A DNA stretch of 64,000 bases from Artocarpus heterophyllus (Eukaryota > Streptophyta > Magnoliopsida > Rosales > Moraceae), in assembly GCA_025403435.1 (NCBI GenBank), contig CM046347.1:26300597-26364596 (forward strand), in the 5' to 3' direction. The translations under genes were made by a program, and so were the position numbers. Below the pieces are notes generated by a model. The model worked only from the letters and a program-made list of their open reading frames with translations, was not told where the DNA came from and ran no database searches. This document shows, piece by piece, positions 2,339 to 63,576 of this stretch (the stretch's first letter is position 1; every line of letters starts with the position of its first letter).

Positions 2339-2454
2339 CGACAGTTAAGATTACGCGTTTTTCACGCGTATCTTATCAGATATTGATCCGAACTTGATTC
2401 TGTTTCGATTTTTGAGACCTAATCTGATATGGACTGACCCCAAGGACCAATAGG

Positions 2455-2856: not shown

Positions 2857-2868
2857 TGGTATCAGAGC
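2857..2868 (+). other. tRNA-iMet primer binding site
   Basis: TGGTATCAGAGC starts two bases after the 5' LTR end. This is the usual 12-nt complement of plant initiator tRNA-Met 3' end used by copia and many Gypsy elements to prime minus-strand synthesis. Confidence 0.92.
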
Positions 2869-4046: not shown

Positions 4047-4360
4047 ACATGATGGTCCCAACCCCTAGGAAGGGATTTCTATCATGTACCAGATTGGATC
4101 TCTGAAAGGATAAGGTATTTTAGTATGATTTATGGTTGCACACCCCTAGGTGGTGATTATAAATCATAGATAAAATATTAAAACGGTGGTTATACACTCA
4201 CGTTAATTTTATTATTAACCTCCCCTAGGAGCTCTGTTAATAAAATTAATGGCCAAAGAAACGATTATTAGTATATGCTGGATCATACGGGTCCTGGATG
4301 GCATATATTAATCAGGAGGGGATCCGTGTTCCTGATTGAATTTGGCATGACTCCCCTAGC
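4047..4360 (+). other. Chain of stem-loops with CCCCTAGG loops in the copia leader
   Basis: Successive inverted repeats flank a shared loop motif. Stem 4047-4053/4081-4087 encloses CCCCTAGG at 4062. Stem 4124-4133/4159-4168 (TATGATTTAT and its perfect complement) encloses CCCCTAGG at 4143. Stem about 4202-4219/4236-4250 encloses CCCCTAGG at 4222. Two further stems follow (4267-4278/4301-4312 and 4311-4317/4330-4336), then CCCCTAGC at 4353 within a short GAATT/AATTC stem. CCTAGG is self-complementary. The array lies just upstream of gag, where retroelement RNAs carry packaging, dimerisation or translation signals; that role is inference. Confidence 0.75.
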
Positions 4361-4525
4361 AGCTTGTTGAATTCTGAGTTGGGAATTATCGTTGTAAGGT
4401 TGTGATATTTTCAAGGTTTTGACACATAAACACATTTGTATGATTTTACATGATTGTGTTATCTTACTAAATTATTATATATGTTTGCTTATGTTTGGTA
4501 TATGATTCTTTATTGTAGATTGAAA

Positions 4526-7500
4526 ATGTCTAAAAATGTTTTATCATCGATACTTGACAAAAACCAATTAACCAGTGAGAACTATAATGATTGGAAACGG
4601 AACCTGGACATCGTCATTTCCTTTGAGAAATTGAAATATGTTCTGACAACTCCTTGTCCTCCCGAGCCTACGGGAGACTCAAGTAATGAGCAATTTCAAG
4701 CGTACGACCACTGGAAAGATGCTAATGATCAGGCCCGCTGCTATGTTATGGCTAGCATGAATAACGTGCTGCAGGCTCAACATCAGGATTATGAGACTGC
4801 GAAGCAGATCTTGGATAATCTTGAGGATATGTTTGGAGGCCAGGCCATAACAAAGCGGCAAGGGGCGCTTCGGAAACTCTTAAACTGTAGACAGAGACCG
4901 GGGACATCTGTAAAGGAGCACATGATGTTGGTCATGGGTTACCTCGCTGAGGCTCAAACCAATGGAGCCGACATCGATGCTGAAACTCAGATGACTATGG
5001 TCTTTGAGACTCTGTCTAAGGAATTTATTCCGTTTAGAGCTACTTTTAATCTAAGCAATAGACGGGATATGACCTTGACAGAACTGATGAAACAGTTACA
5101 AGAGTTTGAACTGCTGATCAAGGAGTCTCCTGCTGGTGGAGAGGCCAATATGGTAGCTGCTTCTGGTTCCAATCCTAACTCTGGGAATGGAAAGAAGCAA
5201 CGGGCCAAAAGTGGGAAGTCTTCTATTCCTATTGCTACCAAGAGCAAGAAGAAGAAGAAGAAGAACCCAAAGAAGCTTAAGTGCTTCTTTTGTGGTAAGG
5301 TCGGGCATATAAAGAAGCATTGCAAGGACTTCCTTTCCAAGGGAGGTAGGTGTGATCTTCTATATTTAGAAACTTGTTTGGTTGAGGAATCCAGTGACAT
5401 TTGGGTCATAGATTCCGGTGCAACTAATCATGTTTGTGTTTCTCTGCAGGGATTCAAAGAAACGAGAAGTCTACTTCGTGAAGACTTAACGCTTCGGATG
5501 GGCGATGGATCCTTGGTCTCAGCGGAAGCAGTGGGAGATGTCCATCTTTATTTTGATAATTATAGGAGTTTAATTTTGCGAGATTGTTTTTATGTTCCTA
5601 AATTTAAAAGGAATTTAATTTCTGTATCTTCTTTATTTAAAGACTCCTACGTGGTATCTTTTAATGAAAAAGTGGTGATTCGTAAAAATAAATCTTTTAT
5701 CTGTTCTGGATGGATGCAAAATAATCTACATTTTATCAAACCTAAGATGGACCTATTGCTTAATGCTGAGATAAATGATAATGACTCAAAAAGACTTAAA
5801 ACTTCTCACTCTAATAAGACTTATCTTTGGCATTTGCGCCTTGGCCATATTAACCTAAATAGGATTCAAAGGTTGGTAAGGGATGGACCTTTAAGTCACT
5901 TAAAGGTGGAATCTATACCTCAATGTAAGTCTTGTTTGGAGGGTAAAATGACCAAAAGACCATACGGGTCTAAGGGCAATAGGGCCGAAGGGGTTCTAGA
6001 ACTTGTGCATAGTGATGTTTGCGGACCGATGAACATCCGGGCACGAGGAGGGTATGAGTACTTCGTTACTTTTATTGACGATTACTCAAGATATGGGTAT
6101 GTGTACCTAATGCACCACAAAAGCGAAACTTATGATAAGTTCAGGGAGTTTCGGGCTAAAGTGGAAAAGCAATTGGGTAGACCCATAAAGGCACTTCGAT
6201 CTGATCGAGGTGGGGAATACCTTTCTGATGAGTTCTTGGGACACTTGTTAGAGAATGGGATTTTATCCCATTTGAATGCGCCGGGCACTCCGCAGCAAAA
6301 TGGCGTAGCAGAGAGAAGGAATAGGACTTTGTTGGACATGATTCGGTCCATGATGAGTTATTCATCATTGCCTTTATCCTTTTGGGGATATACACTACAA
6401 ACCGCATGTTATCTTTTGAACAATGTGCCTTCAAAATCGGTCCCTAAAACTCCTCACGAGTTGTGGACAAGACGGAAGACATCCTTAAACCATATTCGCA
6501 TATGGGGATGTCCAGCTCATGTCCTGTTTAAGGATCCGAATAAGTTGGAAGCACGTTCAGAAGTTTGCGTGTTTGTAGGATATCCAAAAGGGACTAAAGG
6601 GGGTTATTTTTATAACCCAAAGGAAAATAAAGTCGTGGTTTCAACTAATGCAACTTTCCTTGAGGAGAGTTACATGAACGACTTTAAACCTCAAAGCAAA
6701 GTGGTGCTTGAGGAGTTGAGGGGTAATCCGTTTACTCCGGAGGTTCCGAACGAAACCATTCCGATCGGTGTAGAAAAACCAAACAAACCTGAACAACAAC
6801 CTCAGGGGCTACGACGTAGTGGGAGGATCGGGCGTCAACCTGAGAGGTATATGTTCAATGGGGAGGTCTTTTTGGCTGAACCGGATGAACATGACAGGGA
6901 TCCTTATACTTACGCAGAAGCTATGGAGGATGTTGATTCAAGACTCTGGACAGAGGCCATGAACATTGAGATGAAGTCTATGGAGACTAATCGGGTCTGG
7001 GAGCTTGTGGATCTTCCCGAAGGGGTAAAACCCATAGGGAGTAAGTGGATCTACAAGAGGAAAAGAGGAGTGGATGGAAAGGTCGAAACCTTTAAGGCTA
7101 GACTGGTAGCTAAGGGTTATACGCAAAAGGAAGGAATCGATTATGAGGAAACCTTTTCTTCTGTAGCCATGCTTAAGTCCATCCGGATTCTCTTGTCCAT
7201 AGCTGCCGCTCTCGACTACGAGATTTGGCAGATGGATGTCAAGACTGCTTTTCTGAATGGCTATCTTGATGAGTCCATTTATATGGAACAACCAGACGGG
7301 TTCAAGGTCACGGGTCAAGAGGGTAAGGTTTGTAAGTTGCTAAAGTCTATTTATGGACTTAAGCAGGCTTCTCGTTCTTGGAACATAAGATTTGATCATG
7401 TGATCAAGACTTATGGGTTCTCACAAAATGTGGATGAGCCATGTGTTTACAAACACATTAAGAATGGGAAGGTGGTTTTTCTACTACTCTATGTAGATGA

Positions 7501-8479
7501 CATTCTGCTAATTGGCAATGACGTTGGGGCATTGTCATCGGTCAAATTATGGTTGACTAAGCAGTTTGACATGAAGGACTTAGGTGAGGCTAATTTTGTT
7601 CTCGGTATCAAGATCTTTCGGGATAGGAAGAACAAAATGATAGCTTTGTCACAGGCCGGCTACATAGATAAAATTCTTAGGAGGTTTGCAATGCAGGATT
7701 CCAAGAAAGGTGGGCAACCATCTAGGTCTGGAATTACTCTTTCTAAGAAAGACTCTCCAAAGTCTTATGAAGAAAGAGAATACATGAAGAAGGTACCTTA
7801 TGCTTCGGCAGTGGGTAGTCTCATGTATGCCATGCTTTGCACTCGACCGGATATTAGCTATGCGGTCGGGATTGTGAGTCGATTTCAGGCGGATCCAGGA
7901 CCGAACTATTGGGTTGCGGTAAAGCATATTTTCAAGTACCTAAGAAGGACTCGAGGGTATATGCTTGTGTATTCGGGTGAGGATTTAACTCCTCTAGGAT
8001 ACACTGATTCGGATTTTCAATCCTGCCTGGATTCTAGGAAATCGACATCGGGGTTTGTGTTTACTCTGGGTGGCGGTGCCATCAGTTGGAGAAGTGCGAA
8101 GCAAGATTGCACTTCAGATTCAACGATGGAGGCCGAGTATGTGGCGGCTAGTGATGCTTCGAAAGAAGCAGTGTGGCTCCGCAAGTTCCTTGGGGATCTT
8201 GAGGTAGTTCCTGGTATGGATAAAGCGGTATCACTGTACTATGATAACAGTGCGGCGGTAGCTAATGCTAAGGAACCAAGATTTCACAAGAAGAGTAAGC
8301 ATCTTGATCGGAAGTATCATGTGATAAAGGACTTCGTTGAGAGCAGGCATGTCACGGTATGCAAGATTGCGTCAGAGGACAATTTAGCTGATCCATTCAC
8401 GAAGACACTTACTGGGAGAGTCTTCGAGAGGCATATGGAAGCTATGGGGATGCGAAATTTGCAGTATTTACTCACTTAG
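4526..8479 (+). CDS. Copia gag-pol polyprotein (intact)
   Basis: An uninterrupted 1317-aa ORF from the ATG at 4526. The frame is open upstream to 4454 but without a convincing start, and gag homology begins at MSKNVLSS. Visible domains: UBN2-type gag (about 1-240); CCHC zinc knuckle with first Cys at residue 253; aspartic protease DSGA at 296; integrase HHCC zinc region (about 437-475); D497, D560 and E596 of the DD35E catalytic triad; reverse transcriptase with YVDD (D991, D992); and RNase H starting near TDSD (D1161). No frameshift or internal stop was seen, so the protein could be functional. It acts in cytoplasmic virus-like particles to copy element RNA and integrate the cDNA. A polypyrimidine tract with TTGTAG just before the ATG could be a splice acceptor for a spliced leader, which is unproven. 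Confidence 0.96.
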
Positions 8480-8482
8480 TGC

Positions 8483-8493
8483 AAGTGGGAGAT
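8483..8493 (+). other. Polypurine tract of copia element
   Basis: AAGTGGGAGAT directly abuts the right LTR, four bases after the polyprotein stop codon. This is the standard position of the plus-strand primer. Confidence 0.85.
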
Positions 8494-10526
8494 TGTTAGA
8501 CATGTATGCTCTAAGGAGTAAAAATGTAATACGTTTTTTGAGACATTTTTATCAATAAAGAATTTATTCATTTATATATACCAAATATTGTCCTCTTTAC
8601 GTTCATATTTGTTGAATGTATGATAAGCAAACAGTAGTCTGAGACTGTTAGTCTAAACCTTAAGAGTTGGGCATATGATGGGATGATTATGCGGTAGACA
8701 CGACTCTTAAGGTGATGGTCTAAAATATATGATCCGCAATCGAGGGAATAAAGTTGGGCGCTTTATTCATGTAAAGATTGTTATGTTGTCTATATCCCTT
8801 TTGGGAGATGGTTTGTCTTGGCCATCGGAGTTGGACTCTGTGAATAGAAACATTGGCGCGTTGTCATAGGTGACGATGTGTTGGATCGGGACATAAAGTG
8901 AATTGATTTGGATTAATAATTCTGTCTTGGCAAATCGATTCACTTTAGACAATCATTTGTATTGTATCTTAATCCTAAGATGAATAATGGACCCGTTGTC
9001 TCGACTTGTGTCTTTTGATGTACCAATGGGTGACTCCCACATCTCTATAGTGGCATGCATGCCGGTACGTTGGAGGCATGACTCTTGGTAGCGTAGACTT
9101 GTTATTCATAGATATGGAATCCATAGCTCCTCTTTAGGAGTAATGATATCCTCTTATATGCGTTGTCTTGTAATTGGAAAACTGGAGCGCTCAACCATTT
9201 GGATACATAGGTGTAACCGAATGGTATACTATCTTTGGATGGTAAGTTTTCTAATGGTGAGACAATGGAACGTAAGATAAAAATAATCGGGAAGGTAAGA
9301 CAAAACTTGTCCTTAAGCCGGTTATGGATGATCATATGGGGATGCGATACACTATGATATGTCATGGAGACTTAGCTACACGAGCTTCGTAATTCTATAA
9401 AGTTCGAGAGTGCAGCTCCAAGCTTTTAGTGGAGTAGCGTTGGAGTTGATAATTGTGAAATGTATATCTGGGATATTGGGTTTCATAATTATCATGAGCT
9501 TGAACTTTATAGGTCCATTTTGGTCCCCTTTGCTAGCTCACAAAATCCTGTAACGACACGGCGTGCTTTTTCAATAATTGGTGACTTATGTTGGATTTAT
9601 CAGATTGGTTTAAAATTTATAAGAATCAAATAATTCATGTCTGTTTATCGGTTGAATTAATTATGTAAGAAATTAGTTCAAGATGAACTTGTTGAATTAT
9701 GGCGTTCGGATAATTCTTGTCTGTTTATCGGTTGTTTTAATTTTGGACAATTAGAACAAGATAAACTTGTAGAATTATTGTGAATTGATTTATTTTCTTA
9801 GAGATTATCTTGATAAAGTTTGTTTTGATCATATATCTTTTCTATTGGGCTATTTGAATCAAAACTGAGACTTTATCCTTTAGAATCTCGGGTGGAAAAT
9901 AAAAGATTCGCGGAGATTTTTTCTCGGCAGTTCGGCCTGCCTATCAGAAAGTTCGGCCTGCCGAACTGGCCAGTTCGGCCTGCCTATCACACAGTTCGGC
10001 ATGCCGACCGCGACAGTTAAGATTACGCGTTTTTCACGCGTATCTTATCAGATATTGATCCGAACTTGATTCTGTTTCGATTTTTGAGACCTAATCTGAT
10101 ATGGACTGACCCCAAGGACCAATAGGTATAAAAAGGGAGTGAGTCTAATGATTTACTCAGATCTATTTGAGAGATTAAGAGTGATACTCTTCTAGTGAGC
10201 ATCTGAAAACTTCTTGAGAGCTTTTGTTCACAAATCACGAACACTAGCTTTGGGTTCTCTCTATTGGTTGGAAGGAGAGTCACCGGTGGAAGAGCTGTAC
10301 GTGTGAGCCCACACTCACTCCGGTTGTGGATAGAGAATAGCAAAGAAGACCAGTTGGTTGAGGCTCTTCTGAAACGTTACTTCTCTACACAGGTCGCGGA
10401 GATTCTTCGGCACACTGAGGTTAGTAAGATCTGTTTAATTTATACATATAACATGTTAAACTTGTGTTTTGGAAAATACTCTGATGAAAAAATTTTAAAA
10501 TTCCGCTGCGCACTTTGTTTCCAACA
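8494..10526 (+). repeat. 3' LTR of copia element
   Basis: 2033 bp, same length and termini as the 5' LTR, with about 18 substitutions by eye. It is followed by the TSD copy ATATA at 10527-10531. Confidence 0.96.
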
Positions 10527-10702
10527 ATATATTGTTCACATGCTTTGATCCTTACTTCTGCTGTTTTTGTTTTAATGAAAACGAAATATGCATTTAAAAA
10601 AGCTTATTTCGAGCTTTGGTATTAATATAAATACCTATATTTGAGATTTGCCTTCAACACTGACAACAATTAGTCCTATGATACATCCAATTAATATTTA
10701 GG

Positions 10703-13414: not shown

Positions 13415-15986
13415 ATGAAGGACGTTGAGAAAAGATTTGCCCTGCTTCTCGCGGCGAGGGATTCGGAGTACGTGAAGAAGATCTACGGCGGCTACTTCGA
13501 CGTGTTCGTGGCGGCTTTCGGGGAAGAAGGAGAGAGGTGGGACTTGTTCAGGGTCGTGGAGGGAGAGTTTCCTGAGATGAAGGAGCTGGACAACTACGAT
13601 GGCTTTGTGGTTAGTGGCAGTCCGTACGATGCTTATGGGAACGACTCATGGATTATCAAGCTATGCTTTCTCTTGCAGACTTTGGATTCCAAAGGCAAAA
13701 AAGTCCTTGGAATTTGCTTTGGCCATCAGGTACTACTTCAATATTTTCACATTCCAGGCACATAAGCAGTTTTTATGGAACGTACTATTGTTCTTAGTAA
13801 TTTTTTTCATAACTTTATTTTTACTTTTGTAAAATAATAGTAATTTTTTCCGTGCAATACATAAATTAAATTAAAACTTTGAACTAAGTTTGTGTTTACT
13901 TATCTAGAATTCCAACTCTGGAGAGGGAATTGAATTCTCTATATTAAAATCTAACGTTTACTTTGTATTAAGGAATTAAACAAGGTGGGTTCCATGTATA
14001 AGTAAGGAATTGAATTTTTTTAATACAAAGAAAAGTATCTTCCACCTCCTACCCATGATATTTAATTATTTCCCCTAAAAGATAGGAACCAACAAACTTA
14101 TTTTCAAAATCTACCCTTATTTTAAGTTAGTTATTTACTTCACATGAAGGTAATTTTGTAATCAAACTTATTTTATTCTAATTTCTTCTCATTCTTTAGC
14201 AAAATTAAAAAAATAATAAGAATTCAATTCCCCATATAAATTAATTCCTTAATATATTAGTAAACAATTAAATGTGATTTTGGAACTTAATTTCTTTTCT
14301 CTTCCAATTTATTCTTATTCTTTAAATTTCTGATTTATTCTTATTCTTTAAATTTCTGACTAGTTGAATTGTCTAGCATTCTCTTTTTTTTTTTCTTTAT
14401 TCCGCCTTTTACTTTTCTAAAAAATCTATTTATGTAGTTTTCGGTATGCTCTTTTTCCAAAAACAGCACACTCAACTTTTAAAACTCACGTTACAACAAT
14501 ATGAATTTAATTGATTTGATTTCTTGATTTCTAAAATAATTTGTTCATAGCATGTGAAAAAAATAAGAAAGAAAGAATACATTCCTCATGTTGATTGCTA
14601 GATTTTTATAAGATTCCAGTATATTGAATCTGATTTTGTCAATTGAAGCTGGCTCAATTGGTGCTTAGAGGAATCTAAGTTGTTTTAAATATATCGAGTA
14701 CCAAGCTCAAAGTCTGGAAAAAGTATTATTTGGTTTCAAAAAAAAAATTGTGTTTTTACTATAATTATAATGATGTATTTTTCTTTTTATTTTTTCAGAT
14801 TCTTTGCAGAGCATTGGGAGGAAAAGTAGGGAAAGCTTGTAGTGGGTGGGATATTGGAATAAGGCACATAAACATAGTGAAGGATTTGATTCCTTCCAGC
14901 AGATTCCTTAGAGACTTGGATGAAATCCCAGCTTCTCTTTCCATCATAGAGTGCCATCAAGATGAGGTTTGGGAGGTGCCTTTGGGAGCTAATGTGATTG
15001 CATATTCAGACAGAACTGGGGTTGAAATATTTGCCCTTGAAGACCACATTCTTGGAATTCAAGGTCATCCAGAGTACACCAAAGACATACTTGATAATCT
15101 CATTGATCGCCTACTCAACAATAATTCCATAGAGGTGAGATACGTACCTTAAACTATAAATTTATATACATGCGTGTATTTATATATATACACACACACG
15201 TTTGTATGTATGATTGTATATACACCACACCTTTAAACTATGTTCGAATCGTTCACAGTGTAAATCTCTCAATAACTACCGTATCAAGTTAAAAAAGTTT
15301 ATTTATCTTTTTATACATTGTATTTTAGGTTTATTCAAACACTATACCCTTGGTTTTGGATCTCATCGAATTTATATTTTCATATTAGATTTAATACACA
15401 AATTTATACCTTAGTTTAATTAGTAATTGATTTTGACCTTTAAAATGACTAAATTATTTTTAAGTAAAATGGAGAAAAATTACAACTTCCAAAAAATAAA
15501 AAGAAAACAAAAACAAAAATACACAAAACACCTATTTTTGAGAGTATTCTATACATTTTGAAGTCAAAAAACCTTATTATAAAGTTTTTTAAAATTTGTA
15601 AAATTCTCTTCTTCTTTTTAATTTGAGAGTATTTTGGGTAAATTATTAGTTCAAATTTGAATATTGATTGAGAAAAAGTATAAATTTATGTATTAAATCA
15701 AATCTGAGGGCATAAATTCAATGAAATCCAAAACCAAATGTATAGGATTTAAATTAACTTAAAATAGAGGATATAAAAAGATAAAGACCTCAAAAAAGTT
15801 ATATCTCTCACATGCTATAGTATTTTGAATAAACAATAATTCAAACCATTACTTTGAATTTTGCTTCCAACGTCAAGCATAACTAAGTTTAGTTTTAATT
15901 TGAAATTTAGGGTAAAAGTATGAATTTTGATTGATTTGGATTTTTAAAATTTAAAAAAAAATGTTGACAGCACGCGTTAAAAATAA

Positions 15987-24211: not shown

Positions 24212-24576
24212 AGTAAAAAGTTAAATAGCTTACGAACGTCAAATTGCATCATTTAAATTAGAAAAAAGATAAGGAAACCACCTCTAATCTTAACTTGTGT
24301 ACTAACTTATGAGTTAGCTTTTTTTTTATAGGTTATAAAGGATGAGAAGAGTTAGTGTCTCAAACATTACTATTTGATTCAATGCAATGAAGACGATTTT
24401 TATTTTTTTATTTTATTTTATTCATTTATTTGTTTTTAAGAATCCTCGTAAGTCCACATAATAATATAGACTCCACAAATGATCACAAAACGATAAATGC
24501 CATGAGCTTAGCTTTGGTACGAGTAGTGCGACCATCGGATGGAAGGCGGGGGTGTGTGGTTTTGAATAAACTACTT

Positions 24577-24688
24577 GGGCGTTTGGTATGCAGTAATCAG
24601 TATGAATCATATTCTCGAGAAAATGATTGTAGGCAATATGATTCCTAGGAACCAAGATTATCACGTTTGATTGCACGTATGAATCTTC
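24577..24688. repeat. Duplicated left end of TIR element
   Basis: 112 bp almost identical (one mismatch seen) to 26766-26877, the left end of the TIR element to the right. It is cut off by the solo LTR, which inserted here. Confidence 0.85.
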
Positions 24689-26724
24689 TGTTGGAAACAA
24701 AGTGCGCAGCGGAATTTTAGAAAATTTTTCATCAGAGTATTTTCCAAAACACAAGTTTGACATGTTATATGTATAAATTAAACAGATCTTACTAACCTCA
24801 GTGTGCCGAAGAACCTCCGCGACCTGTGTAGAGAAGTAACGTTCCAGAAGAGCCTCAACCAACTGGTCTTCTTTGCTATTCTCTATCCACAACCAGAGTG
24901 AATGTGGGCTCACTCGTACAGCTCTTCCACCGGTGACTCTCCTTCCAACCAATAGAGAGAACCCAAAGCTAGTGTTCGTGATTTGTGAACAAAAGCTCTC
25001 AGGGAGTTTTCAGATGCTCACTAGAAGAGTATCACTCTTAATCTCTCAAATTGATCTGAGTAAATCATTAGACTCACTCCCTTTTTATACCTATTGGTCC
25101 TAGGGTCAGTCCATATCAGATTAGGTCTCAAAAAAATCAAAACAGAATCAAGTTCGGATCAATATCTGATAAGATACGCGTGAAAAATGCGTAATCTTAT
25201 GTGCGCTGATAGGCAGGCCGAACTGTCTGATAGGCAGGCCGAACTGGCCAGTTCGGCAGGCCGAACACATCATCCGGCAGGCCGAACTGTCGAGAAAAAA
25301 TCTCCTCGAATCTTTTATTTTCCACCCGAGATTCTAAAGGATAAAGTCTCAGTTTTGATTCAAATAGCCCAATAGAAAAGATATCTGATCAAAACAAACT
25401 TTATCAAGATAATATCTAAGAAAATAAATTAATTCACAATAATTCTACAAGTTTATCTTGATCCAATTTATCCAAAATTAAATCAACCGATAAACAGACA
25501 AGAATTATCTGATCACAATAATTCAACAAGTTTATCTTGAACTAATTTCTTACAAAATTAATTCAACCAATAAACAGACATGAATTATTTGATTCTTACA
25601 ATTTTTAAACCAATCTGATAAATCCGACATAAGTCACCAATTATTGGAAAAGCACGCCGTGTCGTTACAGGATTTTGTGAGCTAGCAAAGGGGACCAAAA
25701 TGGACCTATAAAGTTCAAGCTCATGATAATTATGAAACCCAATATCCCAGATATACATTTCACAATTATCAACTCCAACGCTACTCCACTAAAAGCTTGG
25801 AGCTGCACTCTCGAACTTTATAGAATTACGAAGCTCGTGTAGCTAAGTCTCCATGACATATCATAGTGTATCGTATCCCCATATGATCATCCATAATCGG
25901 CTTAAGGACAAGTTCTGTCTTACCTTCCCGATTATTTTTATCTTTCGTTCCATTGTCTCACCATTAGAAAACTTACCATCCAAAGATAGTATACCATTCG
26001 GTTACACCTATGTATCCAAATGATTGAGCGCTCCAGTTTTTCAATTACAGGACAACACATATAAGAGGATATCATTACTCCTAAAGAGGAGCTATGGTTT
26101 CCATATCTATGAATAACAAGTCTACGCTATCAAGAGTCATGCCTCCAACGTACCGGCATGCATGCCACACTAGAGATGTGGGAGTCACCCATTGGTACAT
26201 CAAAAGACACAAGTCGAGACAACGGGCCCATTATTCATCTCAGGGTTAAGATACAATACAAATGATTGTCTAAAGTGAATCGATTTGCCAAGACAAAGTT
26301 ATTAATCCAAATCAATTCACTTTATGTCCCGATCCAACACATCGTCACCTATGACAACGCGCCAATGTTTCTATTCACGGAATCCAACTCCGATGGCCAA
26401 GACAAACCATCTCCCAAATGGGATATAGACAACATAACAATCTTTACATGAATAAGGCGCCCAACTTTATTCCCTCGATTGCGGATCATATATTTTAGAC
26501 CATCACCTTAAGAGTCGTGTCTACTGCATAATCATCCCATCATATGCCCAACTCTTAAGGTTTAGACTGACAGTCTCAGACTACTGTTTGCTTATCATAC
26601 ATTCAACGAATATGAACGTAAAGAGGACAATATTTGGTATATATAAATGAATAAATTCTTTATTGATAAAAATGTCTCCAAAAACGTATTACATTTTTAC
26701 TCCTTAGAGCATACATGTCTAACA
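24689..26724 (-). mobile_element. Solo LTR of the copia family
   Basis: 2036 bp, in opposite orientation to the 822-10526 element and closely similar to its LTRs over the full length. It starts TGTTGG and ends CTAACA with perfect 5-bp TSD TCTTC at 24684-24688 and 26725-26729. No internal region is present. Solo LTRs of this kind arise by unequal recombination between the two LTRs of one insertion. The LTR TATA and the GC palindromes are retained. Confidence 0.95.
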
Positions 26725-26765
26725 TCTTCTATTATCACCAAGATTATCACGTGCAATCAATACTT

Positions 26766-27755
26766 GGGCGTTTGGTATGCAGTAATCAGTAGGAATCATA
26801 TTCTCGAGAAAATGATTGTAGGCAATATGATTCCTAGGAACCAAGATTATCACGTTTGATTGCACGTATGAATCTTCTATTAGATTTCTAGGAATAATAC
26901 ATTACCGTGTTTGATTGTACATAGGAATCTTGTATAATTGACAAATAATTTATAGTATTAACATTAAATGTATCAATATAATATATTAGTACTAATATTA
27001 AATAATAATAATATAAACATAAATAATAAAATAATATTATATATAATTTAACATTAATATTACTATGAATATTAATGTTATTATTATCATTATTATTAAA
27101 TTATTATTATTTTATATTAATATAATACTTTCTTTATATTACATAAAAATATTAATTTATAATAATCATAGAATTATTATTTAACAATACATTAATATTA
27201 AAATGTTGTATATAATATATAATATATTGATATGAATATAAATAATAATTAAAATATAATTCTTAATAATATATTAGTATTTATATTAATATTAACATTA
27301 AATAAAAATATTGTTATAAACAATATTAAATATATTTAGTTAAATTTTATATTTATAATTATTATAATAGTATTTATATAATTTTATATTGATATTACTA
27401 TGAATACTAATATTATACTATTCATATTGATGTTATATTATTATGTTTTTATTATTAATGTTATTATTATTCTTATTATTAAATTATAATTTTATATTGA
27501 TATAATATTTATATCTATATCATATATTAATATTAATTTATAATAATACTACAAAATTATTTTATTTTATTATTACAGTATTAATATATATTATATTCTA
27601 ATATTGATTAATAATATATATTATATTTAGATATTGTATATGTAATATATTATATATTTTTATTATTATTGTTAACGTTATTATTATCACTATTATCAAA
27701 TTATTATTTTATATTATATAATTTTTATTTTTATATTGTATAGAAATATTAATTT

Positions 27756-27799
<44 letters not shown>

Positions 27800-28043
27800 T
27801 ATTAATAATATAATTATCATCATCATCATCATAGAAAAAAAAAGTGAAATTTCTATAGTTTTGATATTCCTAGGAATATGAATATCACCTTGTTGGGTAG
27901 GATTCAGATTACTCCAAAATGAGGTAATCTGAACCCCATGGGATGAGTTTCCTAAGAATCCAAAACTCAGATTATTGCATACCAAACATAGGAATCTATA
28001 AGATTCTCATTTTCACCTCAGGATTACTGTATACCAAATGCCC
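26766..28043. mobile_element. TIR element with extremely AT-rich core
   Basis: The left end GGGCGTTTGGTATGCAGT and the right end in complement GGGCATTTGGTATACAGT match at 20 of 22 bases. The subterminal 150-200 bp on each side contain related ATATGATTCCTAGGAA-type motifs in inverted orientation. The core (about 26990-27830) is almost pure A+T with (TTA)n and (TAA)n tracts and no coding capacity. The TSD is uncertain; superfamily unassigned. Confidence 0.65.
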
Positions 28044-54505: not shown

Positions 54506-54510
54506 ACCCT

Positions 54511-56913
54511 TGTAACGCCCCTATATGGGGGTTAACAGTTTTTAATGAGATAAAATAAAAATAAATAATAAAAGTAAAACCTTAAAGATTAAAATTTGCC
54601 CGGGACTTAAATGAAAACTCTCAACTCAAAAATAAAACTATAAACGACAAATAAACCACAGTTTTAATGTAGCACCTTAAATTTAATAATATAAACTGTT
54701 GTCATCATCATTTTAACCCTCAACACATTATAATTACAGTCACAGAAAGTAACAATTGATGCTTACATTATCATGAAGAACATTCTTTACAATTGAGCAG
54801 TCCCAATGTAATATAGTTACATCGCTTCCTCAACTATATTTCTCGTAGCCACCTCACACTTAGTGAGTCCTGAAAAGATATAAACATAAGGGTATGAGCA
54901 ACACTATGCTCAGTAGAGAAAGCCATTACTCACCTTTAGGTTTTTATCATTACCACATTAAAACCTGCATGGTCAGTAAGTCACATCATATTCCAGATTA
55001 TGAGGTTTATTATGATCACATCTTATGGATACCGTAGTTAATCTTTACCAAGTGTCATAATTACACATTTATACAAATATTACCAATCATCATTGTTCCT
55101 AGGTATCCATGTTAAATTGAGTATCACTCAACTCATCGAGACCCAAATGGGCGCACTTGATCACCCTATAAACATTCCAAGGGTGTTCCGGTGAGGGGAC
55201 ATCAAGCCCCGAGTCCTCACCAAATCAATTCCTGTACAGTGTGTTCTGGGACTTTCAACCCAAGGAAGCGTCATCACCTTCCCCCTATTTTACCTTTTAG
55301 GGTATTCATGCCCAAGGACGTAACCGTCGCCCTTTTCATGTCTCACAATTTCTCTATATTAAATCATTATTAATAGAGTTAATTTTCCTAACCATGCTTC
55401 TCAATTTATAACATGTGTCAATTCATTATGTTCCTCGCCGTACAATACAAGACGAGTCCATGTCATAGTTTCATACGTGATACTCATATAATATCAGTTC
55501 AACATAGATATATATATATTGCGGCAAAACAATTAATTTTAATTCTATAAAAACCTCACAAAAGATGAGTAATAGAATCCCTACCTTTCAAGCTTATCAA
55601 CAGTCTCTTAATCCTGGAATCAATTAACGTTAGCTCCATACTCCCTTGATCTTGAACTCCAAGCAAAACAGATCCAGTTGTATCTCGCTGTATCTACGAA
55701 GCATCCTCTGTAGTGCTCCTCGAGCGACTATGAATGGCTAGGAATGCTTCCTGGAGATCATACATTCTTGAAAACGTCATTCTGGACTCCGATACTACTG
55801 TTTGAATTGCCTCGATTCGCGTGCAGTCGGTACCGGATGATTTTCATCGGAGTGGAATTTGCTCAAACGGAGGTCACCATTGCATCCAGAGCATCGAAAC
55901 GAGTCAGGAGGCGGTCTCGGATCTTTGATCGGAGGTCCGGATCACAAAATCCCATTTTGGCCTTTGACCGGCCGTTGACCGGCGTTGACCACCGTTGACC
56001 GGCGTTGACCGACTTTGACCGTCGTTGACTGGCGTCAATCGGGGTCCGTTGGCAGCTGGGCTCGGGCCTACCCCCCCTAAATCGACCCTTCTGAGTCCAA
56101 TGGCGGGGTCAATTTCACCCAATTCTGCCTCTAACATAGCGGGTCGTGAAGTACAACGTCGGTAGAAATGGATGAGCTCCGATCTTGATTCTCCGACGAT
56201 GGAAACCTGAAATTGGCTGAGGGCTTTTGCTACCCATCCTCCTATGAGCATTTCCCCTCATCAAATTTGAAGAAACGTGGCTGGGAAGAGCCAAAACGGA
56301 GGCTCCCGCGGCGGTTGACGGCGGCGTTGGCCGTTCTCCGGCGAAACCGGCTCCTTCCGTGCAATTGATCGAGGGGTTTTACTCCCCTTGATCCTCTGAA
56401 CTCATTGGGAGGGGTGGTGTCAGTCACCTCCTCCGGCAAGGCGGAGTTCCACCATGGGGGCGGAGGTGCACGGCGGCAATAGGCGGGCGGAGCAATCCGG
56501 CGGTTGTTGAGCTGCCACCAAGGGTGGGTTTTGTTCCTCTCATCACGGTGGTCGTGTAGGAACAAGAATCACGTCGATCGGACGTCGGACGGCAAAGATA
56601 TCTCGTCGGAAAGAAATGGGTTTTGCCGCCACTTTGGGCGGCGCGTGTGGTCTCCTCCGGCGGCGTTTTGGGCGGCGCGGCACCTCGTTGGACTCAGCTC
56701 GTCGAGAGCTTTCCATTGGTGCGGGAGGTGTCGAAAACGGATGCCGAAATCTCAGACGATCTTTGAGGAGAGGGAGAGAGAATTTTTAGAGAGAGAAAGT
56801 AGAGAGAGAGAGAGTTTCGAATTATGAGAGAAATTTCTGATTTTTTTTTTATATATATACTAGGTAATTAATCTAATTACCTTAATACCCTTAGGAGAAT
56901 AACGGGTGTCACA
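54511..56913 (-). repeat. 3' LTR of cargo element
   Basis: 2403 bp, TGTAAC...GTCACA on the + strand. By position next to the polypurine tract it is the downstream LTR. Its GC-rich half (about 55740-56760) contrasts with the AT-rich surroundings. ORFs of 84-115 codons here recur in the other LTR and match no family I recognise. Confidence 0.96.
55964..56029. promoter_or_regulatory. Seven TTGAC (W-box core) motifs at about 10-bp spacing, 3' LTR copy
   Basis: TTGAC starts at 55964, 55975, 55985, 55995, 56005, 56015 and 56025; six are TTGACC and one is TTGACT. TTGAC[C/T] is the core bound by WRKY factors. The spacing of one helical turn puts all sites on one DNA face. The same array lies in the other LTR at 62622-62687. 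WRKY responsiveness is inference. Confidence 0.6.
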
Positions 56914-56927
56914 GCTCTACCCCCCTT
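56914..56927 (-). other. Polypurine tract of cargo element
   Basis: On the minus strand AAGGGGGGTAGAGC directly precedes the LTR start TGTGACACCCG. It is preceded by the Gypsy pol-end vestige. Confidence 0.85.
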
Positions 56928-56960
56928 AAAGAAATTTCGTCCTCGAAATTTCAATTCTAG

Positions 56961-57864
56961 TAATACTAGTAAAAATTATGATTCCAATTCCGAGTCTAAA
57001 CCGTTAATGTTGTTTGTCCTCCAAATTTAAGTTATCGTATCTCCACTTATTTACTTGCATAATAAATCTTACTATAAATTCTAAATCCCTCAATGAGAGT
57101 ATTTCTGACAAGTTTCAACTTATAACACCGTATAATAGTCTAAGAATCTGATCAGGCATACATATTGACCATACCATGATTCCAGTCCTTCATTGTCCAT
57201 GGACTGTGATTTACAATCACATTTAAGGAGATTGCCAGAGAAATTTTTATATACTTCATCTTTAGGTTCCTTTCCCTTTTTAAGTAAGGAAAAGTCAAAT
57301 ATATTTGATTTCATACCTCAACTAATAAACTAAAACATAATCATAAAACATATATCACAAACACTTTTATTCAAAACTATACATTAAACTTACTCATAGA
57401 GATATTAAACGGAATCTCAGAGTTGCAGACAAACCCGACATATTTTTCATTAAACAGCTATCATCATGACACAAACATTCAACCCAAATAATATACTCAT
57501 ATTTCATATGGAATATCCCCAAAACTGACTCTGGTACTTCCACATAATATTAACAGAATATTACACATTACAAACATAATACGGATACGTTTCAAGAGTA
57601 CAAGGCACTCCGTATACCAGCTATCCATATCATGCATGCTTATAGAATACAAAAACATCGATAAACAAAAGATCGGACCTTAAGAAGGATGCGTTTCGAG
57701 AGCATCAAGTACTCCGTATCCAGCCATCCCGGCATTAGGCTCAACGAATCTAAAAGATTGAACAACAACGTACCACAAGAAACACAGAATACAGGACAAA
57801 CGGTTATTCGCAACACACGAAATACGGACACACATGCCTATATGCCAAAGATAAAACAAAAAGA
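56961..57864. other. 3' internal region of cargo element, no ORF supported
   Basis: About 0.9 kb between the LOG-like stop codon and the pol vestige. Two similar phrases (GTTTCAAGAGTACAAGGCACTCCGTA near 57589-57614 and a related one at 57687-57719) form a diverged direct repeat. Nothing else was recognised. Confidence 0.45.
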
Positions 57865-58515
57865 TTACAGATGGAGATTCAAATCAATTGGCCGCTCCCG
57901 GCTTTCCCTTTCCCATTCAAGCTTGGATGTTGCAGTGTCGGATTCTGGATGTATGATTTGCATTTTATCTATCAATTCCTCAGCTGTTGAAGCAGTAACA
58001 AAGATTTGTCTCTCCGATTCTGTAGTGATGTTTTCTTCCACAGAGTAATCTAGAAATTTCAAAAGACCGTCATAAAAACCCTTTACGTTCAGCAATCCCA
58101 AAGGTTTGGAATAAAAGCCCAACAATTGCCCACAAGCAACTATAAATATTTCCTCAAGAGTACCTAGACCACCAGGTAATGCTATAAAAGCATCAGAATT
58201 ATAGATTATGTCTTTAAAATTTTTAGGGATACTCCTGACTCCTTCTCCCTTACCTATGGCTTCCTTACAAAGGTTTCCTTCAACTGGAATATGAGGCCAA
58301 ATTCTTACATCAGTAGCGTCGCTAGACCTAGCTGCTAGTGCCATATTTACCATCATTTTTATACTACCACCCCCATAGATTATGTTAATCTTCTTGCGTG
58401 CTAGGACTTGCCCTAAGTGATTTGCAGCTTCTAAATAAGCTTTATCTTTTCCAAGGCTGGAACCACAAAAGACACAGACATTCTTTATTTTCTTCGTGGA
58501 CTGGGAGGTAGACAT
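57865..58515 (-). CDS. LOG-like protein (cytokinin-activating enzyme family), retroelement cargo
   Basis: Intronless 216-aa ORF. The ATG at 58515 gives the family's normal length; the frame is open 13 codons further but with no ATG. Rossmann-like start NVCVFCGSSLG (12-22), YGGGS (47-51), the family signature PGGLGTLEE (114-122) and KPLGLLNVKGFYDGLL (137-152). LOG enzymes cleave cytokinin riboside 5'-monophosphates to free cytokinin plus ribose 5-phosphate in the cytosol. Oddities: GGGS is followed by IKMMV rather than the usual small-residue loop with conserved glycines, and the stretch before the signature (SIPKNFKDI, 95-103) lacks the conserved Glu-Arg-Lys whose Arg is catalytic. Activity may be lost or changed, yet the frame is intact. 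Host LOG genes have introns, so the copy probably came through an RNA intermediate. Confidence 0.85.
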   Translation of the reverse strand: MSTSQSTKKIKNVCVFCGSSLGKDKAYLEAANHLGQVLARKKINIIYGGGSIKMMVNMALAARSSDATDVRIWPHIPVEGNLCKEAIGKGEGVRSIPKNFKDIIYNSDAFIALPGGLGTLEEIFIVACGQLLGFYSKPLGLLNVKGFYDGLLKFLDYSVEENITTESERQIFVTASTAEELIDKMQIIHPESDTATSKLEWERESRERPIDLNLHL

Positions 58516-58554
58516 ATTTGGTTTATAGAAGTGGTTGCTTAATGTCTGCTCCAC

Positions 58555-59159
58555 TTAGACTTCGGGTTCTATATGAGATTTTAAAGATGAGAAATATACA
58601 AAAAAGGGCTAAAGAGATAGACGAGTAGGTAATGAAAAGGTAATCCAAAGATTTAAACAAAATCTTGTGCGGATAAGAAAGTAAGATAAGGTGATTGATA
58701 GTTTACAGAAAATCTGATTCACTTTTTGAAAAAGATTAGACTCTAATTGTATAACTTTTGACAATTGAGAACAATTCGACAGAAGACCCTCTTGACACAA
58801 CTGTAGACTTTTTGACAAATATACACCAAGTCTAGAAATTTAATATAAACGACAAATACTGTAGAACTTTTGAAATTTGAGACACAAATCTTGAAATATC
58901 TGGATAAGCTTTTCAAAATTCAAACATATTACTGTACCGTATGTGACGTGTCTGATAAGATAATATATTTTATTATATATATATTTAAGAAAATCATAAA
59001 TTAAATAAGATATTAACACTTACTGTATCAATCTAATAATCACAATTATTTCAAACACAAAAGCAAATATTCTGAGTAAAAGAAAAACACAAACTGTTGA
59101 ACATCAGCTAAAACTGCTTCAAATAAGTAAGGACTAAATAACCTTTATAGAGCGATGAC
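58555..59159. other. Spacer between the two cargo ORFs
   Basis: AT-rich, about 600 bp. A minus-strand frame of 69 codons (58609-58818) has no recognisable features. No internal promoter is evident. Confidence 0.4.
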
Positions 59160-59681
59160 TTATTTCCCATCCATTTTTCTTATGGCTTGGCAAACAGGAT
59201 CTAGAAATACCATATTCCTGAGGCGTTGTCTTTCTGTATAAAATTTAGGCCAGAGTTTAAAAATAGCTCCTTGAACATATCCACTAGGGTGACCGTGAAG
59301 AGGAGGATGGATGCTATCCAAGTTCTCCTTTGAAAGTCCATCCCTACAAAACCTTATTTTATCCTCTCTATTCGTAGACATATAACCAGGTGAAGTACAT
59401 TTACCGTTACAATTTTGTCTTCCACATTTGTTACAAGTGACCACGATGGCACGAGCTCTTCTTTTCATTGCACTACGACTGGTACCTGTTCCTGGTAAAC
59501 CGACATCTTGACTAAAGTCACTCGGACGGATTTTCCCCTCTATTAACATTCTCACATCACAAGGGATACCAAAACGCATAAGAATCCACAACCGAGTAAT
59601 TCTAGCCTTGTATTTCTTTCTGAGAATCTTTTGGGAGAGTGATGGGAAATACTTTCTCAGGTGTTGGTACTTTGGGTCCAT
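59160..59681 (-). CDS. Cys-rich basic protein resembling viral nucleic-acid-binding protein (NABP), retroelement cargo
   Basis: A 173-aa ORF with ATG at 59681. The N-terminus is very basic (KKYKAR about 22-27). A middle segment RSAMKRRARAIVVTCNKCGR (69-88) puts an arginine-rich patch directly before a four-Cys cluster, Cys83-x2-Cys86-x4-Cys91-x3-Cys95, followed by PGYM and REDKIRFCRDG. This order (hydrophobic helix, Arg patch, Cys4 cluster, short charged tail) is that of the small 3'-proximal nucleic-acid-binding/silencing-suppressor proteins of carla- and vitivirus-type plant RNA viruses. Those are shorter, and this one adds about 55 C-terminal residues (PPLHGHPSGYV to MDGK). It is not a copia or Gypsy gag: the CCHC knuckle pattern is absent. 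Homology is judged by pattern only. Confidence 0.6.
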   Translation of the reverse strand: MDPKYQHLRKYFPSLSQKILRKKYKARITRLWILMRFGIPCDVRMLIEGKIRPSDFSQDVGLPGTGTSRSAMKRRARAIVVTCNKCGRQNCNGKCTSPGYMSTNREDKIRFCRDGLSKENLDSIHPPLHGHPSGYVQGAIFKLWPKFYTERQRLRNMVFLDPVCQAIRKMDGK

Positions 59682-61161
59682 GATGAGATGAAAGAAGAGT
59701 AAATAGAAAGGAAAAATTAAGATAGTAAATTGCAGAATCCTAGAATTCCTTCTTCTTTTAGAGAAAAAGAAGAATTTTTAATGAAAAAGAAGAGGATTTG
59801 CGATTTAGAGAAAAAATAACAAATTAAGAGAGAAAAAGTGAACTCGGAGAAATAAGCTCCTATGCACAGTAAACGTATATGTAAACAATGATTAAACCAC
59901 TGTATATGACACGTATAGAAACCACGTGGGAGAGACAGTGTGAATCAAACTGATTTAAGATTTGAACTAGGCCCAAATGTTCGTAGTTGAAAATGGTCAG
60001 GTTGTTTCGGGCCTTAACACATTTAGAACGAGTTAAATAACAAACATAAAATTGAAAACTAATTCGTATGAATCTTAAACCCAATTCAAAGCCACTATAG
60101 ATAAGTTAACTATGAACAACAAATCTAATTTAACGACAACAAGGATCTTCCTGAATGATATTTAAAATCATTTCATAACAACACAATCTTCCAGCAACTC
60201 AAATGATTTTGTTTTAATCAAAACTTTATTGAACAATACATACACCCATATGTTATTCATAATACTTAACATCTATCAATGGATTCATCATCATTACTAC
60301 CAAGGGTTTAGAATGTGACTAACCTTGAAATCAATACGATTTACGTCTTTCAACGTAGACCATATCAGTGAACAAAGACACTTGATGTTACTACTTAAGA
60401 ACATCTACAATCCCCACAATTCTACTTATACAATATATAATTTCCTCATATAACAAAACCTTAGGTAACCAAAAGATTCACTGATACACTTAAATACAAT
60501 GTACGTAACAAAATATTCCAATTTTGAGATTCATGCATTCTAGACTTTACACAGTCTCAACAGACCAAAAGTCTAACATTTATCTCTCTCATGATTCAAT
60601 ACCATGATTCCCAACTTATATCATATTCCTCAAATAAATAGAACTTTCAAGAAAAGTTATTGACACTTATGTGCTCCATCGAATCCACACATAATCATTA
60701 CTTAGGTTTGAATCAATTACGAAAATTTTGGCATATCTATGTCAAACTTTAAAATCAATAAATCAAGCCTTATATTTCTTATTGTTTTTCACGAGACAAA
60801 AGGCTTTTAAATCCTCGTATCTATACGAATTTCTCATCGTTTATACGAATTAGATATGCTTATAGATCCTAATATTATACGAATCTCTCATAAGCATTCT
60901 ACTTATAAACTCATTCCATATAATTATCATTCCCTCATAACTATTAATACTTTCCTTCTATATAATTATTGTACTCATATAACCATTAGTATTTTCATTC
61001 TATGGCCTTTCCATGTTACATCCTTCTAGACTGTATAAATCAATGTGAAGGTTCATTTTGATGATGACAATGAAAATTCAGCTTCAAAACCATCTCAAAA
61101 ATATATTTTTTTAAAGTGGTGCTACACTCCCTAGGTTAACCGAACCTAGGCTCTGATACCA
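59682..61161. other. 5' leader of cargo element, no ORF supported
   Basis: About 1.5 kb, AT-rich, between the primer binding site and the first cargo ORF on the minus strand. Several variants of TATACGAAT/TCTCATA occur near 60820-60990. No gag-like coding seen. Confidence 0.5.
61149..61161 (-). other. tRNA-iMet primer binding site of cargo element
   Basis: On the minus strand TTGGTATCAGAGCC follows the LTR end after a few bases (GAATTTT). It is the initiator tRNA-Met complement and defines the right-hand LTR as the 5' LTR. Confidence 0.88.
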
Positions 61162-62621
61162 AAAATTCTGTAACGCCCCTATATGGGGGTTAACAGTTTT
61201 TAATGAGATAAAATAAAAATAAATAATAAAAGTAAAACCTTAAAGATTAAAATTTGCCCGGGACTTAAATGAAAACTCTCAACTCAAAAATAAAACTATA
61301 AACGACAAATAAACCACAGTTTTAATGTAGCACCTTAAATTTAATAATATAAACTGTTGTCATCATCATTTTAACCCTCAACACATTATAATTACAGTCA
61401 CAGAAAGTAACAATTGATGCTTACATTATCATGAAGAACATTCTTTACAATTGAGCAGTCCCAATGTAATATAGTTACATCGCTTCCTCAACTATATTTC
61501 TCGTAGCCACCTCACACTTAGTGAGTCCTGAAAAGATATAAACATAAGGGTATGAGCAACACTATGCTCAGTAGAGAAAGCCATTACTCACCTTTAGGTT
61601 TTTATCATTACCACATTAAAACCTGCATGGTCAGTAAGTCACATCATATTCCAGATTATGAGGTTTATTATGATCACATCTTATGGATACCGTAGTTAAT
61701 CTTTACCAAGTGTCATAATTACACATTTATACAAATATTACCAATCATCATTGTTCCTAGGTATCCATGTTAAATTGAGTATCACTCAACTCATCGAGAC
61801 CCAAATGGGCGCACTTGATCACCCTATAAACATTCCAAGGGTGTTCCGGTGAGGGGACATCAAGCCCCGAGTCCTCACCAAATCAATTCCTGTACAGTGT
61901 GTTCTGGGACTTTCAACCCAAGGAAGCGTCATCACCTTCCCCCTATTTTACCTTTTAGGGTATTCATGCCCAAGGACGTAACCGTCGCCCTTTTCATGTC
62001 TCACAATTTCTCTATATTAAATCATTATTAATAGAGTTAATTTTCCTAACCATGCTTCTCAATTTATAACATGTGTCAATTCATTATGTTCCTCGCCGTA
62101 CAATACAAGACGAGTCCATGTCATAGTTTCATACGTGATACTCATATAATATCAGTTCAACATAGATATATATATATTGCGGCAAAACAATTAATTTTAA
62201 TTCTATAAAAACCTCACAAAAGATGAGTAATAGAATCCCTACCTTTCAAGCTTATCAACAGTCTCTTAATCCTGGAATCAATTAACGTTAGCTCCATACT
62301 CCCTTGATCTTGAACTCCAAGCAAAACAGATCCAGTTGTATCTCGCTGTATCTACGAAGCATCCTCTGTAGTGCTCCTCGAGCGACTATGAATGGCTAGG
62401 AATGCTTCCTGGAGATCATACATTCTTGAAAACGTCATTCTGGACTCCGATACTACTGTTTGAATTGCCTCGATTCGCGTGCAGTCGGTACCGGATGATT
62501 TTCATCGGAGTGGAATTTGCTCAAACGGAGGTCACCATTGCATCCAGAGCATCGAAACGAGTCAGGAGGCGGTCTCGGATCTTTGATCGGAGGTCCGGAT
62601 CACAAAATCCCATTTTGGCCT

Positions 62622-62687
62622 TTGACCGGCCGTTGACCGGCGTTGACCACCGTTGACCGGCGTTGACCGACTTTGACCGTCGTTGAC
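62622..62687. promoter_or_regulatory. Seven TTGAC motifs at about 10-bp spacing, 5' LTR copy
   Basis: Exact counterpart of 55964-56029, offset by 6658 bp. Being in the 5' LTR, this copy is the one positioned to influence element transcription. Confidence 0.6.
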
Positions 62688-63508
62688 TGGCGTCAATCGG
62701 GGTCCGTTGGCAGCTGGGCTCGGGCCTACCCCCCCTAAATCGACCCTTCTGAGTCCAATGGCGGGGTCAATTTCACCCAATTCTGCCTCTAACATAGCGG
62801 GTCGTGAAGTACAACGTCGGTAGAAATGGATGAGCTCCGATCTTGATTCTCCGACGATGGAAACCTGAAATTGGCTGAGGGCTTTTGCTACCCATCCTCC
62901 TATGAGCATTTCCCCTCATCAAATTTGAAGAAACGTGGCTGGGAAGAGCCAAAACGGAGGCTCCCGCGGCGGTTGACGGCGGCGTTGGCCGTTCTCCGGC
63001 GAAACCGGCTCCTTCCGTGCAATTGATCGAGGGGTTTTACTCCCCTTGATCCTCTGAACTCATTGGGAGGGGTGGTGTCAGTCACCTCCTCCGGCAAGGC
63101 GGAGTTCCACCATGGGGGCGGAGGTGCACGGCGGCAATAGGCGGGCGGAGCAATCCGGCGGTTGTTGAGCTGCCACCAAGGGTGGGTTTTGTTCCTCTCA
63201 TCACGGTGGTCGTGTAGGAACAAGAATCACGTCGATCGGACGTCGGACGGCAAAGATATCTCATCGGAAAGAAATGGGTTTTGCCGCCACTTTGGGCGGC
63301 GCGTGTGGTCTCCTCCGGCGGCGTTTTGGGCGGCGCGGCACCTCGTTGGACTCAGCTCGTCGAGAGCTTTCCATTGGTGCGGGAGGTGTCGAAAACGGAT
63401 GCCGAAATCTCAGACGATCTTTGAGGAGAGAGAGAGAGAATTTTTAGAGAGAGAAAGTAGAGAGAGAGAGAGTTTCGAATTATGAGAGAAATTTCTGATT
63501 TTTTTTTT

Positions 63509-63518
63509 ATATATATAC
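63509..63518 (-). promoter_or_regulatory. Possible TATA box of cargo element
   Basis: TATATATATA on the minus strand, about 55 bp inside the 5' LTR, followed downstream by CTCTCTCT-rich sequence like a plant 5' leader. If used, U3 is very short and most of the LTR, including the W-box array, is transcribed. Confidence 0.35.
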
Positions 63519-63576
63519 TAGGTAATTAATCTAATTACCTTAATACCCTTAGGAGAATAACGGGTGTCACAACCCT

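What the first reader, a model, noticed from the sequence alone, without database searches (positions are those of the whole stretch)
54511..63571. Young non-autonomous LTR element with a LOG-like gene and a viral-NABP-like gene in place of gag-pol
Seen: matched TSD, two near-identical 2403-bp LTRs, iMet PBS, PPT, a Gypsy pol-end vestige, and two intact sense ORFs unrelated to gag-pol. One belongs to the cytokinin-activating LOG family and one looks like a Cys-rich viral nucleic-acid-binding/silencing-suppressor protein. Known: LOG makes active cytokinin, and viral NABPs suppress silencing and in some cases alter host cell growth. Inference: this may be a parasitic retroelement that carries its own silencing counter-measure and a hormone-related effector while borrowing gag-pol in trans. 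I know of no described element with this cargo pair.
Basis: partly seen in the sequence, partly recalled or inferred. Interest (0 to 1): 0.92.

Follow-up and report, generated by a model that had tools for sequence, protein, structure and literature searches.

The report
Jumping gene carrying disarmed hormone-enzyme gene

Summary
The anatomy is confirmed. On the minus strand, 54511-63571 is a complete young LTR retrotransposon: two 2403-bp LTRs with 2 differences, a 5-bp duplication (AGGGT), an initiator-Met-type primer site and a polypurine tract. Its 4255-bp interior shows no gag-pol domain and holds two intact sense ORFs. ORF B (216 aa) is clearly LOG-family (132 bits to TIGR00730; 41% identical, gap-free, to Arabidopsis At2g37210, LOG3). 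But the catalytic Arg and neighbouring Lys, kept in 83 of 83 relatives examined and essential in a mutated bacterial LOG, are Asn99 and Phe100. It is predicted not to release active cytokinin. ORF A (173 aa) matches viral NABP models only below threshold, and an unrelated enzyme model scores better, so its viral link is a lead. LOG (YgdH) domains in Gypsy elements of Citrus and Populus are already published (PMC9289625). The pairing with ORF A, the missing gag-pol and the disarmed active site did not turn up in my paper searches. Copy number, helper, expression and selection between copies are untested: the host-genome and protein-database searches did not complete. Verdict: real, a new variant of a known kind.

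The parts
61169..63571 (-). 5' LTR, 2403 bp, starts TGTGACACCC, ends GGGCGTTACA
54511..56913 (-). 3' LTR, 2403 bp, 2 differences from the 5' LTR
63572..63576 (-). target-site duplication AGGGT (upstream copy)
54506..54510 (-). target-site duplication AGGGT (downstream copy)
61149..61161 (-). primer-binding site TGGTATCAGAGCC, initiator-Met type (tRNA identity recalled)
56914..56949 (-). ATTTCGAGGACGAAATTTC motif and polypurine tract AAGGGGGG, resembling the 3' end of Tekay/Del elements (resemblance recalled)
59160..59681 (-). ORF A, 173 aa, basic, RSAMKRRARA stretch followed by a C-x2-C-x4-C-x3-C cluster; sub-threshold viral NABP-like
57865..58515 (-). ORF B, 216 aa, LOG-family protein in one open frame; PGGLGTLEE kept (114-122), catalytic Arg/Lys replaced by N99/F100
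56914..61168 (-). internal region, 4255 bp, no gag-pol domain found

Best explanation
A young LTR retrotransposon with no recognisable gag-pol holds two intact open reading frames, one of them a LOG-family gene whose catalytic Arg and Lys are replaced; it is likely copied by the machinery of a related helper element, and its LOG-like protein would act as a non-hydrolysing partner or nucleotide binder rather than as a cytokinin-releasing enzyme. Shown: complete LTR anatomy, recent insertion, no gag-pol domain found, two intact sense ORFs, LOG-family membership of ORF B and its replaced catalytic pair. Inferred: the LOG gene was captured as spliced plant mRNA (it is one open frame and shares a KLxWE end with Arabidopsis LOG3), then kept and changed. 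Inferred: because LOGs form dimers and the phosphate-binding PGGxGTxxE loop is intact, the protein would pair with host LOG or hold nucleotides. Inferred: ORF A would be a nucleic-acid-binding accessory protein acting on the element's RNA or on silencing. Transcription is presumed to start in the 5' LTR.
For: LTRs, TSD, PBS, PPT. No retroelement domain in the ORFs or in 14 of 14 sense fragments of 38 aa or more, with a positive control in the same window. ORF B: TIGR00730 132.1 bits against cut-off 96.35; best solved relative Arabidopsis At2g37210, gap-free over 200 aa, 41% identity. N99/F100 in place of R/K, and K in place of G in the GLMG loop, against R, K and G in 83 of 83 relatives. In C. 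glutamicum Cg1261, Ala at Arg155, Lys156, Thr175 or Glu178 gives complete loss of activity, and Arg155/Glu178 are said to be conserved in all LOG subgroups (PMC5379747, passages). ORF still open despite divergence: simulated neutral decay of LOG3 to 41% identity left 1 of 400 copies without a stop. LOG/YgdH domains recur in Gypsy elements of other plants (PMC9289625, section 12).
Against: Only one copy was seen; no helper, transcript or second copy could be searched for (genome search did not complete). The divergence of ORF B may predate capture, so the simulation does not show selection inside the element. Some plant LOGs work instead as phosphohydrolases (iPRMP to iPR), an activity assigned to a serine (PMC11593424, passages); I could not place that residue, so ORF B may keep this second activity. 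ORF B's end branch is 5.19 against a median of 0.38 and the tree does not join it to the two plant LOGs (AU p 0.095 when forced), so plant origin rests on best score and the C-terminus. Dimer pairing is untested. Single-sequence structure models were poor (mean pLDDT 45.9 for ORF B, 41.1 for ORF A).
Confidence: 0.5

Rival explanations
1. Passenger cargo: a one-off capture of host sequence by an LTR element, with ORFs open only because the insertion is young; neither protein does anything for the element.
For: Insertion is very recent (2 differences in 2403 bp). Host-gene transduction present in one or few copies is described for LTR elements (PMC7264820). Replaced catalytic residues fit relaxed constraint.
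Against: ORF B is 41% identical to LOG3 while two Arabidopsis LOGs are 68% identical, yet it has no stop or frameshift; neutral decay to that point left 1 of 400 open. The divergence could still predate capture.
Confidence: 0.28
2. Hormone effector: ORF B is still an enzyme on cytokinin nucleotides, as a classical LOG or by the phosphohydrolase activity known from some plant LOGs, and changes cytokinin levels where the element is active.
For: LOG-family score and intact PGGxGTxxE motif including the catalytic Glu. Some plant LOGs make iPR from iPRMP (PMC11593424, passages).
Against: Catalytic Arg and adjacent Lys absent; 83 of 83 relatives keep them; Ala at either abolishes phosphoribohydrolase activity in C. 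glutamicum Cg1261.
Confidence: 0.1
3. ORF A descends from a plant RNA-virus nucleic-acid-binding protein and serves the element as a silencing suppressor.
For: Two viral models hit the same stretch: Viral_NABP E 0.0054 and Carla_C4 E 0.026 on the 88-aa core; 0 of 10 controls (9 shuffles, 1 reversal) hit either at E up to 1. The Cys-rich protein of a carlavirus is a silencing suppressor (PMC10219291, passages).
Against: Both scores are below the curated cut-offs (17.1 vs 23; 14.9 vs 20.9). MCM_OB also scores 14.9 bits on the core (E 0.023), and an unrelated dehydrogenase model scores better in NCBIfam (E 0.00064). No relative found in viral contigs.
Confidence: 0.3
4. Assembly artefact joining LTRs to an unrelated interior.
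For: Single copy seen; the interior shows no Gypsy coding domain.
Against: Matching TSD, primer site 7 bases from one LTR, purine tract 6 bases from the other, and identical LTR ends fit one intact element.
Confidence: 0.03

Closest known systems
Gypsy-type LTR retrotransposons with a YgdH (LOG) domain in Citrus sinensis, C. clementina and Populus trichocarpa (PMC9289625, section 12 and passages read; it cites Steinbauerova et al. 2011, which is not held)
   Same: A LOG-family domain inside a plant Ty3/gypsy element
   Different: Those consensuses were found through their reverse transcriptase, so they carry pol; no second ORF like ORF A and no active-site loss is mentioned in the parts read
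Plant Tekay elements with additional 5' ORFs (PMC11728184, abstract and passages)
   Same: Tekay-like ends (recalled) and an extra ORF with a suggested role in modulating RNA silencing
   Different: Those keep gag-pol; their extra protein is largely disordered and compared with DRBM proteins, not LOG or Cys-rich
Phalaenopsis Gypsy elements with an AlkB RNA demethylase (PMC9289625)
   Same: Captured cellular enzyme domain in a Gypsy element
   Different: Enzyme active in vitro and RT present; here the enzyme is predicted inactive and pol not found
Large non-autonomous LTR elements (LARD type, recalled) and the gene-transducing element Bs1 of maize (PMC7264820 and PMC8616336, passages)
   Same: LTR, PBS and PPT without working gag-pol (LARD); host gene capture (Bs1)
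   Different: LARDs are typically non-coding (recalled); Bs1 carries host gene fragments fused to gag

Membership tests
LTR retrotransposon | two LTRs, TSD, PBS, PPT | tested here: met
Ty3/gypsy, Tekay lineage | gypsy-order pol and chromodomain / RT phylogeny | not testable with these tools
   no pol or chromodomain found in the element; assignment rests on recalled primer-site and PPT-side motifs only
Non-autonomous LTR element | no gag-pol of its own | tested here: met
   control; fragments under 38 aa not scanned
Non-autonomous LTR element | autonomous partner with matching LTRs | not tested
   The genome search did not complete (12 calls)
LOG protein family | TIGR00730 / Lysine_decarbox above curated cut-off | tested here: met
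LOG cytokinin-activating enzyme | PGGxGTxxE motif | tested here: met
   residues 114-122
LOG cytokinin-activating enzyme | catalytic Arg with adjacent Lys | tested here: not met
   N99, F100; 83 of 83 relatives R, K; role from PMC5379747
LOG cytokinin-activating enzyme | phosphoribohydrolase activity | not testable with these tools
   needs an enzyme assay; the NCBIfam equivalog NF058542 scores 85.2 bits against its cut-off of 300
Viral_NABP (PF05515) | score at or above gathering cut-off 23 bits | tested here: not met
   16.3 bits whole, 17.1 bits core
Viral_NABP (PF05515) | RNA binding or silencing suppression | not testable with these tools
   needs experiment

The most novel reading that the evidence does not exclude
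A retrotransposon family has turned a captured hormone enzyme into a catalytically dead LOG that pairs with and poisons host LOG dimers, lowering cytokinin in cells where it moves, and travels with a virus-derived nucleic-acid-binding silencing suppressor in place of gag-pol: a two-gene parasite of both the host and its helper element.
Probability: 0.1. Interest if true: 0.88.

Novelty: new variant of a known kind. Interest (0 to 1): 0.5.

Why it matters
LOG domains are reported in Gypsy elements of other plants, but I found no paper that asks whether those are enzymes. This copy shows that the family's sequence and nucleotide loop can be kept while the catalytic pair is gone, so the benefit to the element, if any, is probably not classical cytokinin release. 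That gives a testable question: do element-borne LOGs act by pairing with host LOGs, by binding nucleotides, or not at all? An element with two ORFs and no gag-pol is also a clean case for asking how cargo is selected when replication is borrowed.

Tried and rejected
Classical cytokinin release by ORF B: judged unlikely on active-site grounds. Hidden gag-pol remnants: none in 14 of 14 sense fragments of 38 aa or more (Corona_NS3b E 0.082 and AAA_lid_3 E 0.24 taken as chance). A nested DNA transposon as source of the cargo: no long terminal inverted repeats in the interior, the longest non-overlapping arms being 22 nt at 77%. Defence-system link: no PADLOC hit for either ORF. Relatives of either ORF as a single query: none in viral contigs; the LOG alignment A1 found three LOG relatives there. 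Tree placement of ORF B: long branch, not resolved; 35 of the 80 genome-contig loci were used, drawn at random among those with matches over 165 residues. Structure prediction: low confidence for both, so no fold search was run. Confidence in the best explanation was lowered from 0.55 to 0.5, and the enzyme rival raised from 0.07 to 0.1, when I re-read that some plant LOGs are phosphohydrolases.
Full report
What is there. The window (64 kb, 34% GC) looks like a plant genome, judged from its LTR elements and genes; the species was not identified. On its minus strand, 54511-63571 is a complete LTR retrotransposon. The 5' LTR (61169-63571) and 3' LTR (54511-56913) are 2403 bp each and differ at two sites, both transitions; AGGGT flanks the element on both sides. 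With recalled plant rates of 7e-9 and 1.3e-8 per site per year this gives about 59,000 or 32,000 years; two differences are too few for precision. Seven bases from the 5' LTR lies TGGTATCAGAGCC (61149-61161), an initiator-Met type primer site (tRNA recalled), and AAGGGGGG ends six bases from the 3' LTR.

No gag-pol found. The interior is 4255 bp. Apart from the two cargo ORFs I scanned the 14 sense-frame open fragments of at least 38 aa (listed) against Pfam: none gave a retroelement domain (9, 5). Shorter pieces were not scanned. The Copia element elsewhere in the window gives RT, integrase and gag hits, so the method works here. That the element borrows gag-pol is an inference.

Two intact ORFs. 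ORF A (59160-59681, 173 aa) and ORF B (57865-58515, 216 aa) read in the element's direction. The longest ATG ORF in 2000 Markov-1 sequences modelled on the interior was 164 aa, so neither is likely by chance.

ORF B is a LOG-family protein: TIGR00730 132.1 bits against cut-off 96.35, Lysine_decarbox 78 bits against 27; the narrower equivalog NF058542 stays far under its cut-off (85.2 of 300). The best solved relative is Arabidopsis At2g37210 (150 bits), aligned without a gap over 200 residues at 41% identity; a second Arabidopsis LOG, At5g11950, is 68% and a bacterial LOG (5zbj) 49% identical to At2g37210. ORF B is thus more changed than a bacterial LOG, although its end (KLEWE) resembles the plant one (KLCWE). 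It is one open frame, which fits capture of spliced mRNA (introns of host LOG genes recalled).

The active site is changed. In C. glutamicum Cg1261, Ala at Arg155, Lys156, Thr175 or Glu178 abolishes activity, and Arg155 and Glu178 are described as conserved in all LOG subgroups (PMC5379747, passages). ORF B keeps Thr119 and Glu122 in PGGLGTLEE but has Asn99 and Phe100 where LOGs have Arg and Lys, and Lys for Gly in the GLMG loop. The search patterns did not cover the Arg/Lys positions; they did cover Thr and Glu, and the loop position (G or K allowed). Ranking by similarity to LOG3 favours ordinary LOGs. ORF B is therefore predicted to lack phosphoribohydrolase activity. A caveat: some wheat LOGs and a rice LOG act as phosphohydrolases, an activity assigned to a serine in a figure that I could not see (PMC11593424, passages), so another activity is not excluded.

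Constraint. If LOG3 decays without selection until 41% identity remains, 1 of 400 simulated copies has no stop; at 55%, 5 of 400; at 68%, 15 of 400 (substitutions only). The open frame was probably protected during most of its divergence, but that may have happened in a host gene before capture. A tree of ORF B with two Arabidopsis and 35 bacterial LOGs gives ORF B an end branch of 5.19 (median 0.38) and does not place it with the plant pair; holding the three together costs 2.27 log units, AU p 0.095. The tree neither shows nor excludes a plant origin.

ORF A. Pfam Viral_NABP E 0.0096 and Carla_C4 E 0.1 for the whole protein, 0.0054 and 0.026 for its core, all under the curated cut-offs. None of 10 controls (9 shuffles, 1 reversal) matched either model at E up to 1; one shuffle matched Transposase_28 at 0.16. 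Against this, MCM_OB matches the core at 0.023, a dehydrogenase model reaches 0.00064 in NCBIfam and the PDB dehydrogenase 4z9y 0.038; I take these for chance, and they show what this level is worth. A basic stretch plus a Cys cluster (C83, C86, C91, C95; 35 K/R against 13 D/E) fits a nucleic-acid binder. I put a viral origin with suppressor role at about 0.3. That a carlavirus Cys-rich protein suppresses silencing is from PMC10219291 (passages).

What is known. YgdH/LOG domains in Gypsy consensus sequences from two Citrus species and Populus are reported in PMC9289625 (section 12 read; passages), which cites Steinbauerova et al. 2011; that paper is not held, and I recall its abstract naming Athila-like elements with similarity to LOGL4. 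Extra ORFs of plant LTR elements are reviewed in PMC7264820 (two of three parts read). Extra ORFs in a large survey and in the Retand lineage: PMC6317226 and PMC11963269 (passages). Tekay extra ORFs with a suggested silencing role: PMC11728184 (passages). I found no report of LOG plus an NABP-like ORF, of LOG cargo without pol, or of a disarmed LOG in an element in the listings of ten paper searches (47 and 48 asked about a carlavirus protein and LOG catalysis); these cover open-licence papers only.

Mechanism. I commit to a non-autonomous element mobilised in trans, carrying a LOG-derived likely pseudoenzyme and a basic Cys-rich accessory protein. Likeliest action of the pseudoenzyme: pairing with host LOG or binding nucleotides, since the phosphate loop is kept and LOGs form dimers. 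All action steps are inferred. The chief rival is passenger cargo.

Not settled. Host species, copy number, helper, expression and selection between copies. The genome search gave no answer in 12 tries and the protein database search failed five times.

Noticed in passing
822-10528: Full-length Copia element on the + strand, LTRs about 2035 bp at 99.1% identity, a 1341-codon stop-to-stop gag-pol frame (RVT_2, rve, gag) and the same initiator-Met type primer motif at 2857.
   Followed up: partly
24565-26878: An inverted LTR of the same Copia family (24689-26727, about 96% identical) flanked by two near-identical 125-bp direct repeats (97.6%), far longer than a usual target-site duplication.
   Followed up: partly
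26971-27817: Long, very AT-rich tract of degenerate short repeats that matches itself on both strands.
   Followed up: no
57577-57719: Two copies of a 39-nt repeat (77% identical), starts 104 nt apart, just downstream of ORF B inside the element.
   Followed up: no
14679-15149: Open stretch with a class-I glutamine amidotransferase match (PF00117, 25.8 bits against cut-off 22.8), probably part of a plant gene.
   Followed up: no
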